Below are positions 7,423-20,209 of a DNA stretch of 27,205 bases, piece after piece. The notes below the pieces were generated by a model. The model was not told where the DNA came from, did no database searches, and worked only from the letters and a program-made list of their open reading frames with translations. Origin of the DNA: a virus; IMG/VR virus record IMGVR_UViG_3300031379_000018, positions 1 through 27,205 of that record. One strand, given 5' to 3'. Made by a program: the position numbers and the translations under genes. How positions within the stretch are numbered: the first letter of the stretch is position 1; each line of letters starts with the position of its first letter.

Positions 7423-7764
7423 ATGAACAAGGATTTTGCTTTATTCCAAAAAGAGTTCAAAAGGTGGCAGAAGCTATTTGGGCTTACTGGCTATAAGGTT
7501 TATTTCAAATATGAGCCAGAAGAGGGTTATTTCGCAAGCCTTTCTGTCAACCAGGGGAATATGGTAGCTACTGCAACACTAAACAGTGAACTGCCTGACA
7601 AAGATAAACCCTTCAAGGATATTAAGCGAACTGCCAAGCATGAGGCAATACACTTATTAGTATCCAGATTAGAGAAGGATGGGCGTTATCGGTTCACATC
7701 TGAGGATGAAATCTATGAAGCCACCGAGGAATTAGTATTTAGGCTAGAGGATTTAATCCCTTAA
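7423..7764 (+). CDS. HExxH metallopeptidase-like protein
   Basis: This 113-residue protein contains a zinc-protease signature KHEAIHLL with His73, Glu74 and His77. A Glu-rich helix follows (EIYEATEELVFRLE, residues 96-109), where Glu99, Glu102 or Glu103 could be the third ligand, giving a minimal gluzincin-like or SprT-like fold. The N-terminal YKVYFKYEPEEGYFASL reads as two strands, as in these families. The AAGGAG site lies only two bases from the ATG, unusually close. It lies between terminase and portal genes, so a role in head maturation is possible. Loss of activity or a purely structural role cannot be excluded. Confidence 0.6.
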   Translation: MNKDFALFQKEFKRWQKLFGLTGYKVYFKYEPEEGYFASLSVNQGNMVATATLNSELPDKDKPFKDIKRTAKHEAIHLLVSRLEKDGRYRFTSEDEIYEATEELVFRLEDLIP

Positions 7765-7773
7765 GGAGCAATT

Positions 7774-9537
7774 ATGGCAGACGAAACCACAAACGAATAC
7801 AAGGTATTTGACAATAAGCGGGGAACACTGAAGCCCATACATGACCGGATGGACGTGGACGAGGCTCTTTACTTCCTCAAGCCCTACAAGATGATGATGC
7901 TGGATGACCCCAACAAGGAAATGCCAGATGTCGCCAATGTTACGCTGAATGATTGCCTTCTCTATGCCGTTAAAGCCATATCAATACTCAGCGGTGCGAC
8001 CATGCAGGCAATCGTTGAGGGGCACAAATTAACGGACAAGCAAACTACCTTGATTGAGCAATTCCTCTCTGATGTCTACTACATGATAGACGAATGGCTA
8101 GAGAAAAAGGGTATATGGGGCCTAGGGCCTTTCGCCGATGAGCAGATAATGATTCGAGGTCATGTTGCTGCCCGTCCTTGTCTAAGGATAAGCAAAGATG
8201 GCGTGCTTATCCCTGATGTCACTCCCCTGGACACCCGGTTCTTCGCCCCGGAGTTGGGAGAAAACGGAATTGTTTGGGGAGCCCCATGGTTTACTCAGAC
8301 TAAAGAGGAACTGGAGCGGGAATATAGCAAGCCCGGTGACACGCTGCCGACTGTAGAGGGCAGCGAGAACGAAGTCGTGGACCTGTGGAACTCTGAAAAG
8401 AACCTCGTCTTTGTGCAAAAGGAAATAGCTCGACAGCAGCCTAACACCTATAAATACCCGCCTTTTGTCTATTCAGTCGTCCACGCTGGCTCCATGTTCT
8501 ATAGCAAAGATGCAGTGGAGCATCGTGGTGAAAGCATACTTTGGGCTGACCGTGAACTCTGGTCAGAGAAGAACGGCATCGCAACAATTCTAAAGACCAT
8601 AAGTGTCAATGCCTTATTCGCTGCCTTGCAGCTAGAGACCTCAAAGCCAGGGCAAGCCAAGAAGCCAAAGACATCACCCTACAAGCAAAGGACTGTGCAT
8701 CCAGTAGAGATAGGCGGTGGTTTTGCCGCTATGCCAGTCAACGACATAAAGAGAGCCACGACATTATACTACTCTATTGTCGAAACCGATGCACAGCGTG
8801 GAAGCCTGGCAGCGATTGATTATGGAACATTGAACTTCCCGCTTTCTTCGCTGGCAATGGCCAGGCTCACTGGCTCGCGAAACGACATATTCCTGCCCCG
8901 AGTGAATACGAAGGCGGTATTTTACCAGGCTCTCAGCCGCATGCTTATTAACCAGTGCATACAGCTAGACCAGCCTATAATCGTGGGGCCAGAGGGCAGC
9001 GAGAATGAATATAAACCAGATGACCTCAAGGGTGACTACACAATCAAATACCGGTTTTTCACTGAATCGGCAGAGCAACGGATAGCCAATTTCGCTATAG
9101 CCAAGGATGCAAGTAACTTCTACAGTAGAGACACTATAAGGCGGGAGTTCCTGAACGATAAAGACCCCGACGGGGAAGAGATTAAGTTTCTGTCCCAGCA
9201 AGCTGAAGGTGTAGATGAGGTTCTCTTCCTATTCAGGAGAGGAAGAAAGTTGGTTGAACCTGTCAAAAAGGGTGATAAGCTAAGCCGACAAGCCAAAATT
9301 GAGGCTCGCATATTGGCTCAGAGGATACGCACAATTCTAAGGCAGAGGAAGGCTATGGGGCGCTTGAGCGGGTTAGAAGCTGATGGTTTCCCCAATGTCC
9401 AGGCTGAAGGTAAGCCTAAACCTTCGCTAGAGGAAGGTGGTGGAGGGAATCCTGCCGGCAAAGCTGCACAAAGACCATCAATGCTAAGTAGAGCTCCAAT
9501 GCAAGAAGAAGCTATCGAGGAGGCTGAAAATGAGTAA
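7774..9537 (+). CDS. Portal protein
   Basis: This 587-residue protein lies between the terminase and the head genes, where phage portal proteins are found. The layout fits: an N-terminal helical region, a beta-rich middle part (RPCLRISKDGVLIPDVTPLD) and a long helical wing and stem region (ESAEQRIANFAIAKDASNFY then IRREFLNDKDPDGEEI). The C-terminal 60 residues are low-complexity (GGGGNPAGKAAQRPSM), as in the barrel or tail of many portals. It has AAGGAG five bases from the ATG. As a dodecameric ring it would form the DNA channel and bind terminase and connector. I do not see a fused MuF domain. Confidence 0.85.
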   Translation: MADETTNEYKVFDNKRGTLKPIHDRMDVDEALYFLKPYKMMMLDDPNKEMPDVANVTLNDCLLYAVKAISILSGATMQAIVEGHKLTDKQTTLIEQFLSDVYYMIDEWLEKKGIWGLGPFADEQIMIRGHVAARPCLRISKDGVLIPDVTPLDTRFFAPELGENGIVWGAPWFTQTKEELEREYSKPGDTLPTVEGSENEVVDLWNSEKNLVFVQKEIARQQPNTYKYPPFVYSVVHAGSMFYSKDAVEHRGESILWADRELWSEKNGIATILKTISVNALFAALQLETSKPGQAKKPKTSPYKQRTVHPVEIGGGFAAMPVNDIKRATTLYYSIVETDAQRGSLAAIDYGTLNFPLSSLAMARLTGSRNDIFLPRVNTKAVFYQALSRMLINQCIQLDQPIIVGPEGSENEYKPDDLKGDYTIKYRFFTESAEQRIANFAIAKDASNFYSRDTIRREFLNDKDPDGEEIKFLSQQAEGVDEVLFLFRRGRKLVEPVKKGDKLSRQAKIEARILAQRIRTILRQRKAMGRLSGLEADGFPNVQAEGKPKPSLEEGGGGNPAGKAAQRPSMLSRAPMQEEAIEEAENE

Positions 9538-9706
9538 AGACCTCGACTTTGAATTTACTGTAGATGACTTTGACCGAATGGTTCTTGAGGCTCTTGAAGA
9601 TGATGAGGGAGTAGAAAAGAAGCCCAAGACAACCAGGCCGAACTTCCTAGAGATGCTACGAACTGGTGGCCAGCTAGGAAAACTTAATACTGGGAAAGAG
9701 GAATGA
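9530..9706 (+). CDS. Small acidic phage protein
   Basis: This 58-residue acidic protein overlaps the portal stop by eight bases and the start of the giant gene by four (ATGA arrangement). GAGGAGG lies upstream of the ATG. The N-terminal half is strongly acidic (DLDFEFTVDDFDRMVLEALEDD without any motif); the C-terminal half is basic and Gly-containing (TTRPNFLEMLRTGG). Its position between the portal and the giant virion-type protein suggests a chaperone or adaptor, which is inference only. Confidence 0.6.
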   Translation: MSKDLDFEFTVDDFDRMVLEALEDDEGVEKKPKTTRPNFLEMLRTGGQLGKLNTGKEE

Positions 9707-12700
9707 ATGGATTTACTCTAAACGAAAAGGACTTGCTAAAACAATACGGGCAGGCAAAGCAGCTAGAGATTGAGCGCTTACTGTCGCAATATGGGACTTC
9801 CCTCAAAGATGTCAGGGAGATGTATCCCCAGCTAACAACTGCTATTGAGCAGAAAAGGCTAACGACTACCTTCCCCACACAGCCTTTGTTCTTTACACCT
9901 TCTGAAGCTGCTCAAATGGGTTTAGCACTTCAGGAAGGCTGGATGCTCAAGATGAGTCCGATAGAAGGCAACGGCGGTTTTACTTCTAGCCTTATTACCC
10001 CTCAGAAGTGGGAGATTACTGAGGATGACATGTACATATCACCATCTGGCGACCAATTGGCTAGAGCTGACATGGAGGCACTTCTAGGCGAACCAACGGG
10101 AGCCTTTGAGGCTACTCCATACCCTCTGACTGTAGAGGACTTAACCGAAGAAGGTAAGAGTGCATACCAGGAATATCAAGGAGCTGGTGGCGCCTTAGAT
10201 GTCAAAGGCTGGGTGGACTTAAGAGAGAGGCAGCAGCTTGAAACCGAGCAAGTATTCGGAGCTGTTTTCCCCGAGAAGGATATTCAGGAAGTCGTAGATT
10301 ATATCAACACTGACGCAGAGGGTTTTCTGGCAGATATACGGGAAATTGGCAGGACTGGGGGAACTGAGGCACTGCTACGATATTTGATACCAGAAATTAC
10401 CGAAGCAGACTTTCAGGATATATTTGGCACGGCGGTAACTGCCCCAGGATACATACCTGAGAGCAAGCTGGAAGATGCGTGGGATGCGGTTATTGCCGGT
10501 GCTATGGGATTTAAGCAAAATATAGAAACATTCCTGTTCACAAATCCACCGCCAGACCCCGAAAAGAACCCAGAGGCTTATTCAGCTTGGGCTACTCATA
10601 CAACTGCAATAGCTCCAGAATTTTTCCCACAATATGCACAAGCACAATATGAACAGGGGATGCAAAACACGATAGCAGGATATTTACGGAGAAGGACAGA
10701 ACACGAAACCTTTTGGGCTGAGCATCCTGAACTGGCACCAAGACCTGAATATCTGGAAAACCCCTTTGATAACCCTAGTTTGCTTAAAGACCCGGGTTAT
10801 TGGGCTTATTCAATTTCAAGTAGTTTAGCCTATACCTTAGCTGTTATGGGAACGATAGTAGGAGTAAGCGCCGTAGCGACTCCTTTTGCTGGAATACCGG
10901 CAGGGTTAGCCCTGGCAGCAATGCCTGAAGCCGGCAGTATGATTGATGAATTGGTGAGTAAAGGAGTTCCCATTGAGGAAGCTACAAAATGGGGTGAACG
11001 CTATGGACTCATTGCTGGGGGGATTGAAACAGCGTCAGACTTACCATTCTTAGGATTGGTATTCAAGCCTATTAAGGCAGCAGTTCAACCAATGTGGAAT
11101 ACCATCTTCAGGGGAGTAGCAAGTCGGATTACCAAGAAGATATTGACCGGCCTTGTTATCACGCAGACTGAAGCCTTAGAGGAAGTATTTACACAGGTAA
11201 TACATAACGCTATCCTCAAGCATTATGACGAAACGCAATCTCTTATGGAGGGTGTGAGCCATGCTTACATTCAGGCGACAATAGCCTCAACACCCTTTGG
11301 TGCTATCGGTGGGTATGCCTCGTTTAATACATTCTACGACAGGCTTTCGCCCCAGATGCAGCAGCAATACAGTGGGTTGGTTGAAAGGTTTAAGGATGCT
11401 GGACTCACCGAACAGGAAGCTCAGGTGCAGGCTGCTAATGAGCTGGCTAAGACTACTGAGGGCGAAGCGGAGCTTTCTGAGGCTATCGAGGCAGCACAAG
11501 AGGAATACTTGGAAGAGCATCCTGAGGCAAAACTCCCAAGCCAAGAGCCTGTTATCCCTACTCTACCAGAGAGTATTCTCCAAGATATGAGGGTAGCGGA
11601 TGAGATTGCGAAGAAGGGTGTGCCTGTTACGCCAGAGGTTACGAAAATATCTGAACCAGAAGGCATTAAGCTTTTAAGGAATATCATAGAAGATTATCAA
11701 AATAGGAAACAAAACTATGTAGAATTTCTAATAGGAACCAACTGGCAGTACCCAGGAGATTCTAAATTAGATATTCACCAGTTGGAGAATGACCTAGAAA
11801 AAGCAGGTTATTTCAATGTAAAAGCATTTTGGGATGAGATAGCACAATCGAAAGCAGCAATCCCCAAAGCCAAAGCTGAAGCCAAAGAACCTTGGCAGAT
11901 GACAGAGGGGGAATACAACAACTATATTAACCAACTCCAGAAAGCCCAAAGTCGTGGTTTGACGGAGACATTAACAACCAAAATGGCAAAAGCCTCTGAT
12001 GAATTATCTCGCATTCAAGGTGGGCGTTCTCATAGATGGCAGGTAGAAAAAGCCCTCTCAGAAGGCAAGCCCGTTCCCGCCGAAGTCCTAGCCGATTATC
12101 CTGACTTAGCAGTTCCCGAAATCGCCACAGGCAAGCCATATACCGCTACTGTCTATCGAGGTTATAAAGAGGGCGGTGCTCCTGTAGATGAAGGCTTGTT
12201 CGGCAAGGGGACTTACTACACGACTAACAAGGAATATGCTGAGACCTACGACGGCAAAGAGGTTATGACAGTCAATCTCAAAAACCCCTTCGTTATAAAG
12301 ACTCAACAAGAGGCTGAAGCCTTCTGGAATGAGACTACCAGACCCGCAAGGCAAGAGGCAATTAACGAGGGCAAGACAGTAGAGGAAGCTGACGAACTCG
12401 CTGCCCAAGCTGCTACAGATTATCTTAAGAAACGAGGGCATGATGGGCTTGTAGCCAGAGATATTATTGAAAAGGGCGATGAGATTGTAGTTTTTGAGCC
12501 TGAGAAGGCGGTGGGAGTTCCCAAAGCCGAAGCTGGTATGCCAGAAGCTGGTATGCAACCTTCTATGCTAGAGGAAGTGCCAGCAAAGGAAGTTAAACCT
12601 GCGCCGACAGGGAAATTAGTCCAGGCTCGCATGGACGACTATCTGAGGCTCAGGGAATATAACAAGCAGGCTACCACAGACCGAATTGCCGAGATTAAAA

Positions 12701-15700
12701 AGGCACTCGAAACCAAGGGCAGGTCAGCACTTGGGCTTAAAGGAAACCTGAGATTAGAGCTTGCCAGGCTTGAGGCATTACAGGAAGTTGACGCTGTAAA
12801 GAGTATTCAAGACCTCGATTCCTTAATCAGAGAGGTTCAAGCCGAATTATCAAATCGAGAACTCCCATATCATGGCGGGGCTCGAAATCTATTTAAGGGA
12901 TACACGATAAGACAGCTTGAAGAGATGCTGAATGTCTATAACCAGGCAAGACAATCAATGCAAGCTGAAGTGCCTGCGCTTGAACCAGCACCTAAGCCAG
13001 AGCCAAGCCAGAAAGATATTAACAGAGTTAAAACAGACCCGACCCCAGCATCCGATGAGATTATCCTGCAGAAGTTTATCGAGTGTATTAAGGATGCCAA
13101 GCCCGCAAGGGAAGTTACTGAGGTATTGAAACATCAGGAGTTATCAAGGCGTTCTGCTATCTTTGCTAGTATTTTACAGGGGGGAGAAGGATACAAGGCT
13201 TTTGAGAAGGCTAAGGGGGCTCTGAAGGGATTTTTACCACAGGGCGAGTATATCTTGGACTTGCAGAAGTTCGAGATAACCGATGCAGATATTGAGCGAA
13301 TGATTGACCGCATCCGCCTTGATAATAGTTTAAGGCCTTTTGAGAAACTCAATACTTATCAGGCTTTCACGAATTTGGTTATGGGGTCAATCCCGACTGA
13401 AGGTGAGCTCCTTCTCTTGGAAAGAGAGTTTGGCGCAGACTTCATTAAAGCCATTATGAGTAAAATGGCAGCAAGGGAGAGGGCAATCAGAATTATTCAG
13501 GACATAGCCAACATTCCACGAACCCTACAGACCTTTGCAGACCTATCTGCCAGTCTCAGGCAAGGGGCAGTTTTAGCCTTCGGGCAACCTGTCCAGTTTG
13601 CCACAGCTTTTAAGGCAGAGCTGAAGGTTGTGTTCAGCGAAAAGAACTTTAAGCTAATAAATGAGATTGTGCACAACAATGTGTATGCAGATTCGGCACG
13701 TGAACATGGACTTTACGTTGCTCCTATAGAAGAAGCTGTCAGAATTGAGGCCAGGGAAGAGGCTTTCAGAGGGAGGTTGATTGAGAAAGTGCCTGTTCTC
13801 GGTGCGATAGTTCGTGCTTCAGAGAGAGCTTATATCACGATGCTCAATGTCCTCAGAATTGAGACGTATGCCTATTACGCTCACCAGTGGGAGGGAACAG
13901 GTAAGACCAGTGGCGACTATGACAAATTGGCAGCGTTTATCAATCATGCCACCGGGCGCGGTGACCTAGGTGCGTTTAGCAGGGCAGGAGCTTGGCTTTC
14001 TGCTGCATTTTATTCACCTAGATTTATCATGTCCAGGCTCCAAGTGCCTCTTGATTTGATTAACACAACACCGGCAGTGCGAAAGGTGGTTGCTCGCAAC
14101 CTCGTAGCTTTCGTGGGCACAGGCATGATGGCACTAACTCTAGCAAAACTAGGTGGTGCAGAAACAGAAGATGATCCTCGCTCTAGCGACTTTGGGAAAA
14201 TTAAGATTGGTAATACTCGGATAGACTTCTGGGCTGGCTTTCAGCCTTATGTGCGCGTAATCACTCAGATAATTAACGAGGAACGGAAATCTACCAGGAC
14301 AGGTGAAGTCTATACGATTGACCCAATAGATGTTGGCGTTTATTTCTTCAGGTCAAAGCTCGCTCCAATGCCCGGGTTATTGTGGGATTTGAAGTCAGGC
14401 GAGACATTTATAGGTGAGGAATTAAGTGCCGAGAACGCTGAAAAGATAATCTTTGAAAAGCTAACTCCCCTGTTTATTCAGGACTTAGTTGAAGCTGTGA
14501 GGGATTCCGGGATAGCAGGTGTGGGATATGGGACACTAGCGTTGCTCGGTATTGGGGTTCAAACATGGAGCGATAATTGGGAAACGGCTGAACAGAAACT
14601 CGGCCTGCCACAAAGGGGTGATAATCTGCCTTACACAGTAGAAAATGCAGTTTACGATGTGGGAGATTACTACTCAGAAATAAGCAGAATGATTGGCGGG
14701 GCGACTTACGATATGCTTTCGGACAAATGGAATATATCTGAAATGGTATTATCGGTTGCCCAAGCTAAAGACATCGTAAGAGAGATAAACTTACTCCCTA
14801 ATAAGAGGCTGACCAGCATCAATGCTGACCCAGCTGAGGGAGATACCTTTGAGCAATATCACACACAATGGCTGGCTAGGCAGAAAATCACCGATGCAGA
14901 CGAATTAGACAAGTTCGATAAAGATTATCCAAAGGCTTATCTCGGGAATATGACTCAGGCTCAATATGTCTTATTAACGCAATACCACTCATTACCCGAC
15001 TCCCAGAAAGCAGAGTTTCTTGGTAATCATCCAGAGATTTATGCTAACCCTAGAGAGGATTGGCTAAGGACTCACCCTGAAGAAAACGCCCTGCTGGTTC
15101 TATGGGACAAGGCGAAAATATACAGTCTTGAGGCAGTCAATAAGGTGGAGGCGCTGGCTAAATCCTTAGACATACCTGAAAACGCTTTGATACTCCAAGA
15201 TTTAGATGCCGTTACACAACTGAAACTAAAGAACAAGGCTAATTCTGATTTGCTCGATGCTTACAGTGGGCTCGATGACACATTTAAGGGTCCAGATGGG
15301 CTTACCGCCAGGGATAGAGCTATTCAAGAATTATACACCGATAACCCTGAGTTCAGGGATGATATAAGGCGCATTGAGGCTTTGAATGTGGGGACGGAGG
15401 CAAACCCAACATTAGAAAGTATTGTCGAAGGCTGGGTCGAGAGAGGTCAGGTCGTTGATGAGTTCGGAGCCAGCAGCGTCGAGACTAGATTATGGCTGAT
15501 AGATAACAAGGAAGTCCGCCAATGGGCACTCGACAACAAATTATTAACCGATGATGGCTCAGACTGGAACGAGAACATTCTCAGGCTTCAGGTCGGCTAT
15601 CGAGAGGACTTTGACCTGTACGATTCCTACGGAGACAGGACATCACCCAATTATATTGAGGGGGATATACCTAGAGAAACCGCGCGGAAAGAACTTTTAT

Positions 15701-16140
15701 TTAATGCTCAAGGGCAACTTACTAATTTTGGAACAGCTTATTATACAAAGAAAGCTCTTGAAAAGAATATCCCAGACAATCTTGTTACTACTTATGTTGA
15801 CTATTACGGGATAAGGAAAAAAGAGGGCGTGGATTACTCGGCGGGATGGTATGAGGATGACTGGTTCTTAATTGAAAATAAGGACTTCTATGACACGATG
15901 GTTGATATGGGGCTGTGGCAAGAAAGAGATTTTACTAAAATTCCGACAAGGGAGGTTTTCAATCTGTACCAGACTTATTATACCAAGCATGAAGGTCAAG
16001 AAAGGATAACTTTTAGGATCCAGCATCCCGAATTGGATGCATGGCTAGTCTATGCCAAGCAATATAGCTATACCAGCGATGTAGCTAGGGATATATACTC
16101 GAATCACCCAGATAAGTTTCTGGCATATTGGCCTAGATGA
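9703..16140 (+). CDS. Giant large-polyvalent-type protein with ART-like domain
   Basis: This 2145-residue protein is encoded between portal and scaffold genes. The N-terminal 360 residues are mostly helical. A hydrophobic segment lies around 366-410 (AYTLAVMGTIVGVSAVATPF). Linker motifs known from phage large polyvalent proteins follow: EPWQMT at 729 and HRWQVEKALSEGKPVP at 777. Residues about 815-938 look like an ADP-ribosyltransferase fold: Arg819 in YRGY, GLFGKGTYYTT at 831-841, a helix with KEYAETY, then VVFEPEKAV with Glu932. From about 1270 a helical region (GRGDLGAFSRAGAW near 1418) resembles the LPD38-type domain, and the C-terminus holds HPE-type helical motifs. It is probably a virion or injected internal protein; modification of a host target by the ART is inferred. 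Confidence 0.75.
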   Translation: MNGFTLNEKDLLKQYGQAKQLEIERLLSQYGTSLKDVREMYPQLTTAIEQKRLTTTFPTQPLFFTPSEAAQMGLALQEGWMLKMSPIEGNGGFTSSLITPQKWEITEDDMYISPSGDQLARADMEALLGEPTGAFEATPYPLTVEDLTEEGKSAYQEYQGAGGALDVKGWVDLRERQQLETEQVFGAVFPEKDIQEVVDYINTDAEGFLADIREIGRTGGTEALLRYLIPEITEADFQDIFGTAVTAPGYIPESKLEDAWDAVIAGAMGFKQNIETFLFTNPPPDPEKNPEAYSAWATHTTAIAPEFFPQYAQAQYEQGMQNTIAGYLRRRTEHETFWAEHPELAPRPEYLENPFDNPSLLKDPGYWAYSISSSLAYTLAVMGTIVGVSAVATPFAGIPAGLALAAMPEAGSMIDELVSKGVPIEEATKWGERYGLIAGGIETASDLPFLGLVFKPIKAAVQPMWNTIFRGVASRITKKILTGLVITQTEALEEVFTQVIHNAILKHYDETQSLMEGVSHAYIQATIASTPFGAIGGYASFNTFYDRLSPQMQQQYSGLVERFKDAGLTEQEAQVQAANELAKTTEGEAELSEAIEAAQEEYLEEHPEAKLPSQEPVIPTLPESILQDMRVADEIAKKGVPVTPEVTKISEPEGIKLLRNIIEDYQNRKQNYVEFLIGTNWQYPGDSKLDIHQLENDLEKAGYFNVKAFWDEIAQSKAAIPKAKAEAKEPWQMTEGEYNNYINQLQKAQSRGLTETLTTKMAKASDELSRIQGGRSHRWQVEKALSEGKPVPAEVLADYPDLAVPEIATGKPYTATVYRGYKEGGAPVDEGLFGKGTYYTTNKEYAETYDGKEVMTVNLKNPFVIKTQQEAEAFWNETTRPARQEAINEGKTVEEADELAAQAATDYLKKRGHDGLVARDIIEKGDEIVVFEPEKAVGVPKAEAGMPEAGMQPSMLEEVPAKEVKPAPTGKLVQARMDDYLRLREYNKQATTDRIAEIKKALETKGRSALGLKGNLRLELARLEALQEVDAVKSIQDLDSLIREVQAELSNRELPYHGGARNLFKGYTIRQLEEMLNVYNQARQSMQAEVPALEPAPKPEPSQKDINRVKTDPTPASDEIILQKFIECIKDAKPAREVTEVLKHQELSRRSAIFASILQGGEGYKAFEKAKGALKGFLPQGEYILDLQKFEITDADIERMIDRIRLDNSLRPFEKLNTYQAFTNLVMGSIPTEGELLLLEREFGADFIKAIMSKMAARERAIRIIQDIANIPRTLQTFADLSASLRQGAVLAFGQPVQFATAFKAELKVVFSEKNFKLINEIVHNNVYADSAREHGLYVAPIEEAVRIEAREEAFRGRLIEKVPVLGAIVRASERAYITMLNVLRIETYAYYAHQWEGTGKTSGDYDKLAAFINHATGRGDLGAFSRAGAWLSAAFYSPRFIMSRLQVPLDLINTTPAVRKVVARNLVAFVGTGMMALTLAKLGGAETEDDPRSSDFGKIKIGNTRIDFWAGFQPYVRVITQIINEERKSTRTGEVYTIDPIDVGVYFFRSKLAPMPGLLWDLKSGETFIGEELSAENAEKIIFEKLTPLFIQDLVEAVRDSGIAGVGYGTLALLGIGVQTWSDNWETAEQKLGLPQRGDNLPYTVENAVYDVGDYYSEISRMIGGATYDMLSDKWNISEMVLSVAQAKDIVREINLLPNKRLTSINADPAEGDTFEQYHTQWLARQKITDADELDKFDKDYPKAYLGNMTQAQYVLLTQYHSLPDSQKAEFLGNHPEIYANPREDWLRTHPEENALLVLWDKAKIYSLEAVNKVEALAKSLDIPENALILQDLDAVTQLKLKNKANSDLLDAYSGLDDTFKGPDGLTARDRAIQELYTDNPEFRDDIRRIEALNVGTEANPTLESIVEGWVERGQVVDEFGASSVETRLWLIDNKEVRQWALDNKLLTDDGSDWNENILRLQVGYREDFDLYDSYGDRTSPNYIEGDIPRETARKELLFNAQGQLTNFGTAYYTKKALEKNIPDNLVTTYVDYYGIRKKEGVDYSAGWYEDDWFLIENKDFYDTMVDMGLWQERDFTKIPTREVFNLYQTYYTKHEGQERITFRIQHPELDAWLVYAKQYSYTSDVARDIYSNHPDKFLAYWPR

Positions 16141-16368: not shown

Positions 16369-17118
16369 ATGAAGGACGAAACCAAAGAGACCCAGGAGAA
16401 TTCCCTCCAGGATTCTGGAAAGGCTTCTGAGGGTAGCGAAGGGACTACTCCACCGGATGAAGCCAAGACTCACACACAGGAGGAGCTAGACAAGGCTCTG
16501 CAAGCTGACCGCATTAAGCGAGGTAGAGATGATAAAGCGCTATCCGAAAAGAAAGCTGCCCTCGATGCCCAAGAGGAATCTGTCAAGGCACGACTCGCCA
16601 AGATAGAGGAATGGGAAAGGCAACAGGATGCAGCGGAACTAGCGGAAGCGCAGCGAGACCCCGACAAGTTGGTAGCTTACCAGGCTAAGCAAGTTGAAAA
16701 GAACAGGGGAAAGGGCTTGGACGCTCGCGAGGCTGAGCTTAAAAAGCGAGAGCAAGAGCAAGACCGCAAAGAGGCTGAGCACGCAGAGACGGTTAAGTCT
16801 GCCCAGCAGCACCAGATGGAAATGAGCCTATGGGAGATTGCCGCGGAAGCTGGAATTAACCCACAGACGCTCAAAGATGGTGTTAAGGAACTTAACCTGA
16901 CAACTGTAGAGCAAGCCAAAGCACTCGCCAAACGACTGAAGCCAACGGGTGAACGACCACCAGAGGGCGAAGTTGAAGGCGAGAAAGTGACTCCTATATC
17001 TGTGCCGACGACTGGCGGTTCTCATGGAACACCTACCCTTGAGCAGCGAGGGAAGCAGTCAATGGAAGACTACGCTGCTCAACGGAAAAAGGAAGAACCA
17101 GACAAATTCCCATTATAG
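16369..17118 (+). CDS. Scaffold-like capsid assembly protein
   Basis: This 249-residue, highly charged protein is predicted mainly helical. Residues 1-45 are acidic and disordered. Residues 45-150 form a long coiled coil rich in Glu, Lys and Ala (KAALDAQEESVKARLAKIEE, then DAREAELKKREQEQ). A small domain with EIAAEAGINPQTLKDGV follows at 155-171, then a disordered tail ending in KKEEPDKFPL. That composition, the length and the position directly before the capsid gene are typical of phage scaffold proteins, which guide prohead assembly and leave before packaging. An AGGAGG site fixes the ATG. Confidence 0.8.
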   Translation: MKDETKETQENSLQDSGKASEGSEGTTPPDEAKTHTQEELDKALQADRIKRGRDDKALSEKKAALDAQEESVKARLAKIEEWERQQDAAELAEAQRDPDKLVAYQAKQVEKNRGKGLDAREAELKKREQEQDRKEAEHAETVKSAQQHQMEMSLWEIAAEAGINPQTLKDGVKELNLTTVEQAKALAKRLKPTGERPPEGEVEGEKVTPISVPTTGGSHGTPTLEQRGKQSMEDYAAQRKKEEPDKFPL

Positions 17119-17130
17119 GAGGGATAAAAA

Positions 17131-18243
17131 ATGACGCAAACTCTATTAACTTCAGACATCATAGCTAAAGAAGCTCTGTTGGTCCTGGAGAACGAATTAG
17201 TCATGGCTAACCTTGTCCACCGGGATTACTCTAAAGAGTTCAAAAAGGTAGGGGCAACGGTTACTATCCGCAAGCCAGCGACATTTGAGGCAAGTGCCTT
17301 TTCAACGACTGTCGCTGCCCAGGAAATAGTCGAGTCAAGTGTTCAGGTTATTCTGGATAAGTTTTACGACATTACGGCGCACATAACTTCGCAGGAAATG
17401 TCGCTGGATCTTGTGAGCTTTTCAGAACAGGTGTTGCAGCCGATGATGCGAGAACACGCTCAGAATGTGGATGAAATTATCTTCAGCGAAATCTACAAGA
17501 CTGTAGCGGGGCACACCCCGGTTGCTGGCACTCCGGCGATAAGCGACCTGGCCGGGCTCATGGCACAACTGGACATTCAGAAATGTCCTATTACCGAAAG
17601 ACGGGTAGTCCTGTGTCCTGTTACTCAGGCGAAATACGCTGCGCTTGATGCAATACTTCACGCCGACAAGAGGGGCAAGTCCCTCACCATTGACGAATAC
17701 CGCATCGGGCGTGTACTGGGCGCGGACTACTATATGTCTCAGAATGTGCCGACCTGGGCAAGCAACTCCAACGATGACACGCTGGCATTCAAGGGAGCTG
17801 CTACTGCCGGTGCTACGGCTGCGACACTCGATGCAGGTGGAACAGTAGGCGCTATCGCTGCTGGCGATGTTTTCAAGGTAGTGGGTAGTGACAGGGGCTA
17901 TCTAATCGTAACCGGTAGCACTGTCCTGGCCGATGCAACTGCTGAAATTGACATTACCTTTACCCCAGCTCTTGATGCTGCATTGCTTGATAATGCCGTT
18001 GTTACCTTTCAGAGTGCCGGCAAGGTGAACCTGGCTTTCCACAAGAATGCCTTCGCTCTTGTTAGCGCACCACTGGAACCTTATATCGGCGGAGTCAACT
18101 GCAGCACTCAGAACTACAAGGGCATATCCTGTAGGGTAGCCCTTGACGGGGACACTGTTGCTAAGGCAAACCGCATCTCGGTAGACATCCTCTTCGGGGT
18201 GAAAACTCTGGACAAGGAACTAGCGGCCAGACTATGTGACTAA
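17131..18243 (+). CDS. Major capsid protein, P22 coat family
   Basis: This 370-residue protein has the HK97-like fold pattern of the P22 coat (gp5) family. It has an N-terminal arm, a spine helix region around LVSFSEQVLQPMMREHAQNV (residues 94-113), and a core beta region. An inserted domain at about 212-298 is rich in Gly, Ala and Thr (ATAGATAATLDAGGTVGA), matching the family's I-domain. LAFHKNAFALVSAPL at 301-315 is a typical segment after the insertion. The C-terminal VDILFGVKTLDKELAARL resembles the usual end. AGGAGGG precedes the ATG. It is expected to build the icosahedral shell, with the upstream gene as scaffold. The call is strong. Confidence 0.9.
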   Translation: MTQTLLTSDIIAKEALLVLENELVMANLVHRDYSKEFKKVGATVTIRKPATFEASAFSTTVAAQEIVESSVQVILDKFYDITAHITSQEMSLDLVSFSEQVLQPMMREHAQNVDEIIFSEIYKTVAGHTPVAGTPAISDLAGLMAQLDIQKCPITERRVVLCPVTQAKYAALDAILHADKRGKSLTIDEYRIGRVLGADYYMSQNVPTWASNSNDDTLAFKGAATAGATAATLDAGGTVGAIAAGDVFKVVGSDRGYLIVTGSTVLADATAEIDITFTPALDAALLDNAVVTFQSAGKVNLAFHKNAFALVSAPLEPYIGGVNCSTQNYKGISCRVALDGDTVAKANRISVDILFGVKTLDKELAARLCD

Positions 18244-18318: not shown

Positions 18319-19515
18319 ATGAAGGTTTTACTTACTGGTAATTCACCCTTCAACCAGACAGGCTACGGAATACAACCAGCGCAACTAGCCCTAGAATTAC
18401 GGGGACTTGGGCATACAGTTGCCATCTTTGCCTACTATGGGCTGGCAGGTGGCATTATTTACTGGAACGACATACCTATCTACCCTAACCCCGGTGAAGA
18501 TTATGGCGCAAAATGGGCAGAGAGAATTTATAACCACTTCAAGGCTGATTGCTTAATCACGCTCATAGATGTATGGGTTCAGGGCGAATTATCGGCAAAC
18601 CTTAAATGGTTTCCCTGGACACCTATTGACCATGAACCTATGCCACCGGGGGTTTATAGTGTGCTCAAAAACCACCCGGGGATTTATAAGCCAATCGCCA
18701 TGTCCAAGTTCGGGGAAAAGGAAATGAAGCGCCTCAAAATTGATTGCTTCTACGTTCCCCACATGATTGACTGTAACGCTTATTATCCCAATTTGGAGAT
18801 ACGCCAGATACAGAGGGAAAATGTAGGCTGGACTGATAAGTTCGTCATAGGCAAAGTAGGCACGAATGTCCGTGAAAGAAAGGACTGGACATCTGCCTTT
18901 CTCGCATTAAGTAAGTTCAAGAAATATCACGATGATGTGATGATGTATTGCCACACAGACGCTTCGGAATCAAGAGGGCGCAACCTCCAGGCGTTGCGGG
19001 AAAATCTGATGATTCAAGATGTAACCCGCTTTCCTTCTATGGTGGAGATGAAGCTAACTGGCATCCCTGCACCCACGATGAACAATATGTATAACTCACT
19101 CGATGTTTTCCTGAGCAATTCAAAGGGAGAGGGATTCGGGATACCGACCATAGAGGCACAAGCGGCGGGGGTCCCCGTCATTGTTTCCAACAATACGGCA
19201 CAGCCTGAGCTGTGTGGCGGGGGCTGGATTCTCAAGAGAATGATACCCGAATTTGACGAGCAATCATCCTGGGAAGGAAGAGCCGACCCTGACGAGATTG
19301 TCGAGTATCTTGAGGAGGCTTACCAGGAGAAGAAGTCGGGCAAGCTGGCTGAAAGAAAGATAGCAGCCAGGGAAAAGGCGCTGGAATACGATATACCCAC
19401 GGTGATGGAGAAATACTGGAAGCCCGTCATTGCGGAAATCGAGAAGATGGTACAGATGCCCAGGAAAAAACATAAAAGAAAAGGTGAGCATGCAGGAAGT
19501 CGTAGACAGGTTTAA
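18319..19515 (+). CDS. GT-B glycosyltransferase (GT4-like)
   Basis: This 398-residue protein starts with the Rossmann strand MKVLLTGNSPFNQTGYG followed by LELRGLGHTVAIF, as in GT-B enzymes. The donor-binding E-x7-E motif is Glu271 and Glu279 in SKGEGFGIPTIEAQAAGVPV, the hallmark of family GT4. The C-terminal tail is very basic (KKHKRKGEHAGSRRQ). The ATG follows an AAGGAGG site. It would transfer a sugar from a nucleotide donor; the acceptor could be a virion protein or a host surface glycan. The location right after the capsid gene fits virion modification, but that is inference. Confidence 0.85.
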   Translation: MKVLLTGNSPFNQTGYGIQPAQLALELRGLGHTVAIFAYYGLAGGIIYWNDIPIYPNPGEDYGAKWAERIYNHFKADCLITLIDVWVQGELSANLKWFPWTPIDHEPMPPGVYSVLKNHPGIYKPIAMSKFGEKEMKRLKIDCFYVPHMIDCNAYYPNLEIRQIQRENVGWTDKFVIGKVGTNVRERKDWTSAFLALSKFKKYHDDVMMYCHTDASESRGRNLQALRENLMIQDVTRFPSMVEMKLTGIPAPTMNNMYNSLDVFLSNSKGEGFGIPTIEAQAAGVPVIVSNNTAQPELCGGGWILKRMIPEFDEQSSWEGRADPDEIVEYLEEAYQEKKSGKLAERKIAAREKALEYDIPTVMEKYWKPVIAEIEKMVQMPRKKHKRKGEHAGSRRQV

Positions 19516-20209
19516 GGAAACGGGCAATACCGTAGAACTCTATACTGGCTACGCCAAAGCCAGTGGAAAAAGCTGGGCAAATACTAAAAGACCTTCTTAC
19601 CAGACCGACTTGTGGTATTGCCATAACCGCAACCGCATTTGCCTTGAACTATTGGGTGATTTGTGCGACGGGAAAGATGTCCTGTCCATTGGTTCAAGGG
19701 AGTGGGTAGAAGATGAATTGCTCCAATCAATCAATGGGAGAATTGTCAGGACCGACCTCATCACACAGCCTGAAAAAAAGATTATAGGGGCTGATGTTGC
19801 GTACCTGCCGTTTAAGGATCAAACCTTTGATGTTGTTATTTGCAGGGAAGTGATTGAGCATGTGCCGGATGCGGATGCCACCTTTCAAGAGATTAAGAGA
19901 GTATTAAGATCCGAAGGCTATCTGCTTATAACGACACCGAACGGCCTGGCAGGATACATTGACGGAGTAATCCATGTCCGGGGCTATACACCCCCATCAT
20001 TCCTGAATGAATTGGAGATCCAGGGGTTTGACGTAATCAAGAAGAAAGGGGACATTCCCTATCTTCTTAATGGGATAGTGCTTTTCAAGTCTGTTGAGGT
20101 TCAAAAGAGACTACTTCAAGACTTCATGGAGATAGACCGAGTAACTAGAGACTACCAACATCTCTATTATCTAAGTACGCATTTATATGTTTTGTGTAAA
20201 AGGAGGTAA
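19490..20209 (+). CDS. Class I SAM-dependent methyltransferase
   Basis: This 239-residue methyltransferase of the type 11 kind is read from the ATG at 19490, preceded by AAGGTG. An earlier in-frame ATG at 19430 lies inside the glycosyltransferase gene and is less likely. Motif I is DVLSIGSRE (residues 63-71), a degenerate version of the glycine-rich loop. The acidic position is RTDL (87-90). The strand VVICREVIEHV (115-125) and the TTPNG loop (148-152) also fit. The overlap with the glycosyltransferase gene suggests both act on the same target, for example methylating a transferred sugar. The target is unknown. Confidence 0.8.
   Translation: MQEVVDRFKETGNTVELYTGYAKASGKSWANTKRPSYQTDLWYCHNRNRICLELLGDLCDGKDVLSIGSREWVEDELLQSINGRIVRTDLITQPEKKIIGADVAYLPFKDQTFDVVICREVIEHVPDADATFQEIKRVLRSEGYLLITTPNGLAGYIDGVIHVRGYTPPSFLNELEIQGFDVIKKKGDIPYLLNGIVLFKSVEVQKRLLQDFMEIDRVTRDYQHLYYLSTHLYVLCKRR

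What the first reader, a model, noticed from the sequence alone, without database searches (positions are those of the whole stretch)
9703..16140. Giant polyvalent protein with an ADP-ribosyltransferase-like domain between portal and scaffold
A 2145-residue protein sits in the slot where MuF-type head proteins, often with toxin domains, are usually found in other phages. It carries an ART-like core (Arg819, GLFGKGTYYTT, Glu932), large-polyvalent linker motifs (EPWQMT, EGKPVPAEVLADYP) and hydrophobic segments. This suggests a virion-packaged, possibly injected multi-domain protein that could modify a host target on entry. Polyvalent proteins are known from conjugative elements and phages, but this arrangement in a P22-type head locus deserves attention. 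The ART activity is inferred.
Basis: partly seen in the sequence, partly recalled or inferred. Interest (0 to 1): 0.8.

Follow-up and report, generated by a model that had tools for sequence, protein, structure and literature searches.

The report
Phage ejection protein with swappable ART
A giant protein encoded in the head-gene block of an uncultured podovirus-like phage is probably injected into the host with the DNA, and it carries an ADP-ribosyltransferase-type domain that relatives gain, lose or replace like a plug-in cassette.

Summary
The 2145-aa ORF at 9703-16140 is real, and the ART call holds. Pfam ART-PolyVal matches residues 834-934 at E 9e-6, just under its cut-off; homologue L008 passes it. 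A 39-row AlphaFold model gives an ART-like region at 812-950, whose PDB matches are nearly all ART-superfamily proteins (Z 4-6, middling), including a cyanophage A4 pre-ejectosome chain. One detail is wrong: the likely catalytic Glu is E927 (GDE-IVVF), not E932, which is E/H/Y/D in homologues. R819 is kept except for Lys in two.

About 40 relatives were found, 32 with a readable slot. Nearly all sit between the presumed portal and scaffold genes. N-terminus, hydrophobic domain and C-terminus recur; the middle is mosaic. The ART is present in 10 of 32, with at least 5 gains or losses on the N-terminal tree. L031 lacks exactly the ART that L053 has. L006 and L044 carry an HExxH domain there instead. 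The core is also swapped, sometimes for LPD38, which in Pelagibacter phage Lederberg lies in the T7 gp16 (ejection protein) position.

Best explanation: an injected ejection protein with an exchangeable NAD-using effector. Activity, target, packaging and injection are inferred. New variant of polyvalent proteins.

The parts
9703..16140 (+). giant modular protein, 2145 aa (P0001)
9709..10437 (+). NT: conserved N-terminal domain (aa 3-245), shared by all members
10762..11520 (+). TM: hydrophobic domain (aa ~354-606)
11878..12117 (+). linker with EPWQMT and EGKPVPAEVLADYP motifs (aa ~726-805), shared with L009, L028, L044
12115..12531 (+). ART cassette (aa ~805-943)
   Evidence: PF18760; alignment; predicted fold
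12157..12159 (+). codon of R819, strand-1 active-site candidate
12214..12216 (+). codon of Y838 (GKGTYY), second active-site candidate
12481..12483 (+). codon of E927 (GDE-IVVF), likely catalytic Glu
12514..12618 (+). EAGMPEAG-type junction motif at the right edge of the slot (aa ~938-972)
12616..13014 (+). CC: conserved charged region (aa ~972-1104)
13024..14640 (+). core A (aa ~1108-1646); replaced by LPD38, core C or other modules in relatives
   Evidence: related to phage ctf1B273 protein UOF78006.1
14620..16107 (+). CT: C-terminal region (aa ~1640-2135), shared across core types
7774..9537 (+). presumed portal gene, upstream neighbour
   Evidence: synteny; identity not confirmed by profile
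16369..17118 (+). presumed scaffold gene, downstream neighbour
   Evidence: position next to the coat gene, charge-rich composition, synteny
17131..18243 (+). P22-type major coat protein
   Evidence: PF11651 E 7.6e-42; phrog_283

Best explanation
The ORF encodes a large ejection (internal virion) protein of a podovirus-like phage. It is made with the head genes, docked in the head through its conserved terminal parts (inferred), and released with the DNA (inferred). Its hydrophobic domain and core help form or line the DNA passage through the envelope (inferred). The stretch between hydrophobic domain and core is a cargo slot. In this phage it holds a PARP-like ADP-ribosyltransferase fold with a predicted R819-Y838-E927 active site, which on arrival would use NAD to modify a host protein or nucleic acid, or consume NAD (inferred). 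Related phages swap this cassette for other domains or none, and swap the core too. Shown: ORF, ART homology and predicted fold, conservation, synteny, cassette presence/absence. Inferred: packaging, injection, catalysis, target.
For: ART: PF18760 E 9.3e-6 in the window and 4.2e-7 (above cut-off) in L008; predicted region 812-950 matches NatT, MbcT, ParT, VPA0770, PARP2, TNKS2, PARP10 and a diphtheria-toxin homologue, and a cyanophage A4 pre-ejectosome chain at 1419-1608; dN/dS 0.05-0.12. Delivery: head-block position in nearly all loci with flanks; TM then ART also in L063, L065, L066, with L065 beside a virion structural gene (phrog_3287) and a weak 'DNA ejection protein' match; LPD38 occupies the core position in L009 and L016, and lies in the T7 gp16-like position of Pelagibacter phage Lederberg; no second tape-measure-sized ORF in the longer loci. 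Cassette: L031 versus L053/L019, ART versus HExxH beyond an 80% identical linker in L002/L006, at least 5 label changes.
Against: No virion proteomics exists for this family. The portal was not confirmed by profile. Structural Z scores (4-6) are middling and the Foldseek E-values are not significant. The first fold, with 4 sequences, failed. The His of the polyvalent HYD2 clade is Arg here, and Lys in two relatives, so some copies may be inactive. In P22 and T7 the ejection genes lie elsewhere, not between portal and scaffold.
Confidence: 0.62

Rival explanations
1. The ART fold is a catalytically dead structural piece of the ejection protein: it helps assembly in the head and no longer modifies anything.
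For: The strand-1 residue is Arg, and Lys in L022 and L053, where described polyvalent ARTs have His (PMC5512222). The ART-like region of cyanophage A4 is part of an ordered pre-ejectosome structure.
Against: GKGTYY and E927 are conserved across close members and dN/dS is 0.05-0.12. The domain can be absent or exchanged while the rest persists, so it is not needed for assembly. Arg at strand 1 is usual in other ART clades (established knowledge).
Confidence: 0.2
2. The protein is made late and acts inside the producing cell (assembly factor or exclusion of competing phages) rather than being injected.
For: Only position, not virion presence, is known. It lies between presumed portal and scaffold, not in the usual P22/T7 ejection gene place.
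Against: LPD38 proteins and TM-ART proteins of other phages lie among ejection or structural genes; the large conserved scaffold around the slot and the hydrophobic domain fit a delivery protein; an ART-like region is present in a solved pre-ejectosome.
Confidence: 0.12
3. The domain works mainly as an NAD-consuming enzyme (like the RES-domain proteins NatT and MbcT) that starves the host or blunts NAD-based defence, not as a protein-modifying enzyme.
For: NatT and MbcT are among the best structural matches (Z 5.9 and 5.8), and Arg at strand 1 recalls that group (established knowledge).
Against: Z differences under 1 are ties, and ParT, PARP2 and others match nearly as well; no sequence link to the RES family was found.
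Confidence: 0.2

Closest known systems
Phage polyvalent proteins (Iyer et al. 2017, PMC5512222), ART-PolyVal PF18760
   Same: giant multi-domain protein in the head/packaging gene block with an ART; LPD-type domains exchanged between members; predicted to be packaged and injected
   Different: Arg instead of His in strand 1 and Glu instead of Asp in strand 5; NT, core A and CT have no Pfam match; the ART occupies one defined slot that is filled, emptied or refilled
Cyanophage A4 pre-ejectosome (PDB 9k3a chain B, presumably A4L_27 of Anabaena phage A-4L)
   Same: podovirus internal protein with an ART-like region (YHGT and GSGTYF motifs)
   Different: no sequence relation outside the ART-like region was found; the region lies near the C-terminus; gene lies after the tail tubular genes
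T7 gp16-type internal virion proteins; LPD38 proteins of Pelagibacter phage Lederberg and Escherichia phage PTXU04
   Same: large protein in the ejection gene block; the LPD38 core is interchangeable with core A in this family
   Different: the window protein has no LPD38, and the gene lies between presumed portal and scaffold
T4 Alt
   Same: virion-packaged, injected ART that modifies host proteins (established knowledge; PMC5512222)
   Different: Alt belongs to the R-S-E clade and is a smaller separate head protein, not part of an ejection protein
MuF-effector fusions
   Same: effector domains in head-gene-block proteins near the portal
   Different: no MuF domain detected in 15 members

Membership tests
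ART superfamily | ART fold | tested here: met
   predicted region 812-950 matches about ten ART-superfamily entries at Z 4.2-6.1 among Foldseek's candidates; scores are middling
ART superfamily | three-residue active site in strands 1, 2 and 5 | tested here: met
   R819, Y838, E927 conserved, except Lys for Arg in L022 and L053
ART superfamily | NAD-dependent activity | not testable with these tools
   needs biochemistry
ART-PolyVal (PF18760) | score above the curated cut-off | tested here: inconclusive
   window 26.9 bits against 31.2; homologue L008 31.3
Polyvalent ART, HYD2 clade | His-Tyr-Asp active site | tested here: not met
   Arg-Tyr-Glu here against H-Y-D described in PMC5512222
Phage polyvalent proteins | large multi-domain protein combining disparate domains, encoded with packaging and structural genes | tested here: met
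Phage polyvalent proteins | packaged and injected | not testable with these tools
   needs virion proteomics
Podovirus ejection (internal virion) proteins | present in virion and ejected | not testable with these tools
   needs proteomics
Podovirus ejection (internal virion) proteins | structural resemblance to a solved ejectosome component | tested here: inconclusive
   only the ART region matches 9k3a chain B, Z 6.1
LPD38 proteins | LPD38 domain | tested here: not met
   absent in the window protein and core A not detectably related at profile level; present in L009 and L016
MuF head proteins | MuF domain | tested here: not met
   no MuF match in 15 family members at E 0.1

The most novel reading that the evidence does not exclude
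A family of phages, probably infecting Dehalococcoidia, uses one giant ejection protein as a modular delivery platform: conserved ends, interchangeable membrane/channel cores (core A, LPD38, core C and others), and a cargo slot into which effector cassettes (an Arg-Tyr-Glu ART, an HExxH domain, others) are plugged, much like polymorphic toxins.
Probability: 0.5. Interest if true: 0.68.

Novelty: new variant of a known kind. Interest (0 to 1): 0.52.

Why it matters
Polyvalent proteins have been described mainly from their domain architectures. Here relatives that share the rest of the protein show the same place filled, emptied or refilled, so the cargo idea becomes testable: compare otherwise similar phages with and without the ART. 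It also links polyvalent domains (ART, LPD38) to the machinery that carries podovirus DNA into cells, in line with an ART-like region in the solved cyanophage A4 pre-ejectosome.

Tried and rejected
E932 as catalytic residue: rejected, it varies E/H/Y/D while E927 is conserved. LPD38 in the window protein: not found. MuF membership: not found. First AlphaFold job (4 sequences, mean pLDDT 46.6) was unusable and its structure comparison gave nothing relevant. Sequence searches of the PDB gave no significant hit for the whole protein, N-terminal 950 residues, core, C-terminus or LPD38 core; the ART profile's weak hits included the PARP15 GKGTYF motif. Foldseek alone gave no match with E under 0.001 in the PDB or the viral library. 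ART in named phages: only a weak hit in crAss-like cr85_1 (E 3e-3, inside a putative RNA polymerase subunit); none in plasmids. The EPWQMT linker and the L006 HExxH domain had no match in named phages. No conserved extra gene (possible immunity gene) between the giant gene and its neighbours in ART-positive loci was apparent from the gaps. Clustering of the ART on the N-terminal tree: 7 changes against 7.9 in shuffles, so none. The portal could not be confirmed by profile. The paper on the cyanophage A4 structure is not held.

Full report
Observation. The window is a 27,205-base viral record. It holds one uninterrupted ORF of 2145 codons at 9703-16140. Downstream lies a P22-type coat gene (PF11651, E 7.6e-42), upstream a terminase (phrog_2). 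The gene at 7774-9537 is called portal by position, size and synteny only; profiles did not confirm it.

The ART domain. Pfam ART-PolyVal matches residues 834-934 with E 9.3e-6, 26.9 bits, below the curated 31.2. The homologue in L008 reaches 31.3 bits; L002, L003 and L028 also match. An AlphaFold model of residues 1-950 built on 39 related sequences has mean pLDDT 69.5, with blocks of about 73-95 over most of 840-930, though 829-837 is poor. Among its listed matches in the 805-950 region, all but the EF-Ts and proteasome rows are ART-superfamily proteins by title or established knowledge, or hold an ART-like region: NatT, MbcT, ParT, VPA0770, PARP2, TNKS2, PARP10, a diphtheria-toxin homologue, and cyanophage A4 pre-ejectosome chain 9k3a_B at 1419-1608 (Z 6.1, rmsd 4.0, 126 aligned). 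Z of 4-6 is middling, and Foldseek E-values were not significant. The presumed A4 protein, A4L_27, shows YHGT and GSGTYF motifs in that part.

Active site. The window has R819, GKGTYY with Y838, and GDE-IVVF with E927. By established knowledge of PARP1 (His862, Tyr896, Glu988) the counterparts are R819, Y838 and E927. The ART profile weakly pairs GKGTYY with the PARP15 GKGTYF motif. R819 is Lys in L022 and L053. Described polyvalent ARTs are His-Tyr-Asp (PMC5512222), so this is a variant. Pairwise dN/dS of 0.05-0.12 indicates purifying selection, with dS high in many pairs.

Relatives and architecture. Scans gave about 40 distinct N-terminal relatives, nearly all viral contigs. The module order is NT, TM, variable slot, an EAGMPEAG-type junction motif, CC, core, CT. 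In nearly all loci with flanks the gene follows the presumed portal and precedes the scaffold, often with the coat gene after it. Cores fall into groups with no detectable relation in profile comparison: A (with looser relatives including ctf1B273), LPD38 (L009, L016), C (L008, L013, L019, L031, L053) and D; F is at most weakly like A.

The slot. The ART occurs in the window, L002, L003, L008, L019, L021, L022, L028, L053 and L079, 10 of 32 readable slots, and with core A, its looser relatives, and core C. L031 matches L053 closely on both sides but lacks the ART. L002 and L006 share a linker at 80% identity, after which L002 has the ART and L006 a domain with an HExxH motif, 95% identical to L044. 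On the N-terminal tree (30 rows, 9 with ART) the label needs 7 changes; well-supported branches force at least 5; it is no more clustered than shuffled labels. Most other slot contents have no convincing family match.

Delivery. Three lines suggest ejection. First, TM followed by ART appears in L063, L065 and L066 without a detected NT module; in L065 the neighbours include a virion structural family (phrog_3287) and a weak DNA-ejection match (E 0.0078). Second, the LPD38 core that replaces core A in L009 has relatives in 154 phage records; in Pelagibacter phage Lederberg the LPD38 protein follows tail tubular A and B and an internal virion protein and precedes the tail fibre, the T7 gp16 place. 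Third, no other tape-measure-sized ORF was seen in the longer loci. A giant DarB-like protein was found in virions of Burkholderia phage JC1 by mass spectrometry (PMC9144972), a parallel and not a test. Packaging and ejection here are not shown.

Host. A Dehalococcoidia bin holds a related 6.8-kb contig, the only hit among the bacterial and archaeal genomes scanned, and a second genome of the same class holds a 12.5-kb contig with a distant relative. Binning error is possible.

Known versus new. Head-packaged ARTs (T4 Alt) and polyvalent ARTs are known (PMC5512222, PMC9503650). What is added is a family in which one site of a probable ejection protein is repeatedly filled, emptied or refilled, together with exchange of the core. 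I rate this a new variant of a known kind, interest 0.52.

Noticed in passing
window 7423-7764: Small ORF with an HEAIH motif (possible SprT-like metallopeptidase; no Pfam hit). It lies between terminase and portal here but after the giant gene in L003, L006, L019, L027, L031 and L044.
   Followed up: partly
L006 11825-13003 (and L044): HExxH (HEALH) domain in the ART slot, 95% identical between the two phages; no convincing family match.
   Followed up: partly
L067 7974-9035: A 3318-residue phage protein with two tandem ART-like domains.
   Followed up: partly
L087 20116-25269 (Anabaena phage A-4L, A4L_27): Annotated 'tail protein' (1717 aa) with YHGT and GSGTYF motifs in its C-terminal part, probably the ART-like region of the solved pre-ejectosome; Pfam finds nothing.
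   Followed up: partly
L022 and L053: ART copies with Lys at the strand-1 Arg position, possibly weakened enzymes.
   Followed up: no
window 18319-20209: Glycosyltransferase-type gene (phrog_2170) followed by an apparent methyltransferase ORF after the coat gene, matched in only some relatives.
   Followed up: no
L090 (crAss-like phage cr85_1), 9001-9273: Weak ART-like match inside a large putative RNA polymerase subunit (E 3e-3).
   Followed up: no
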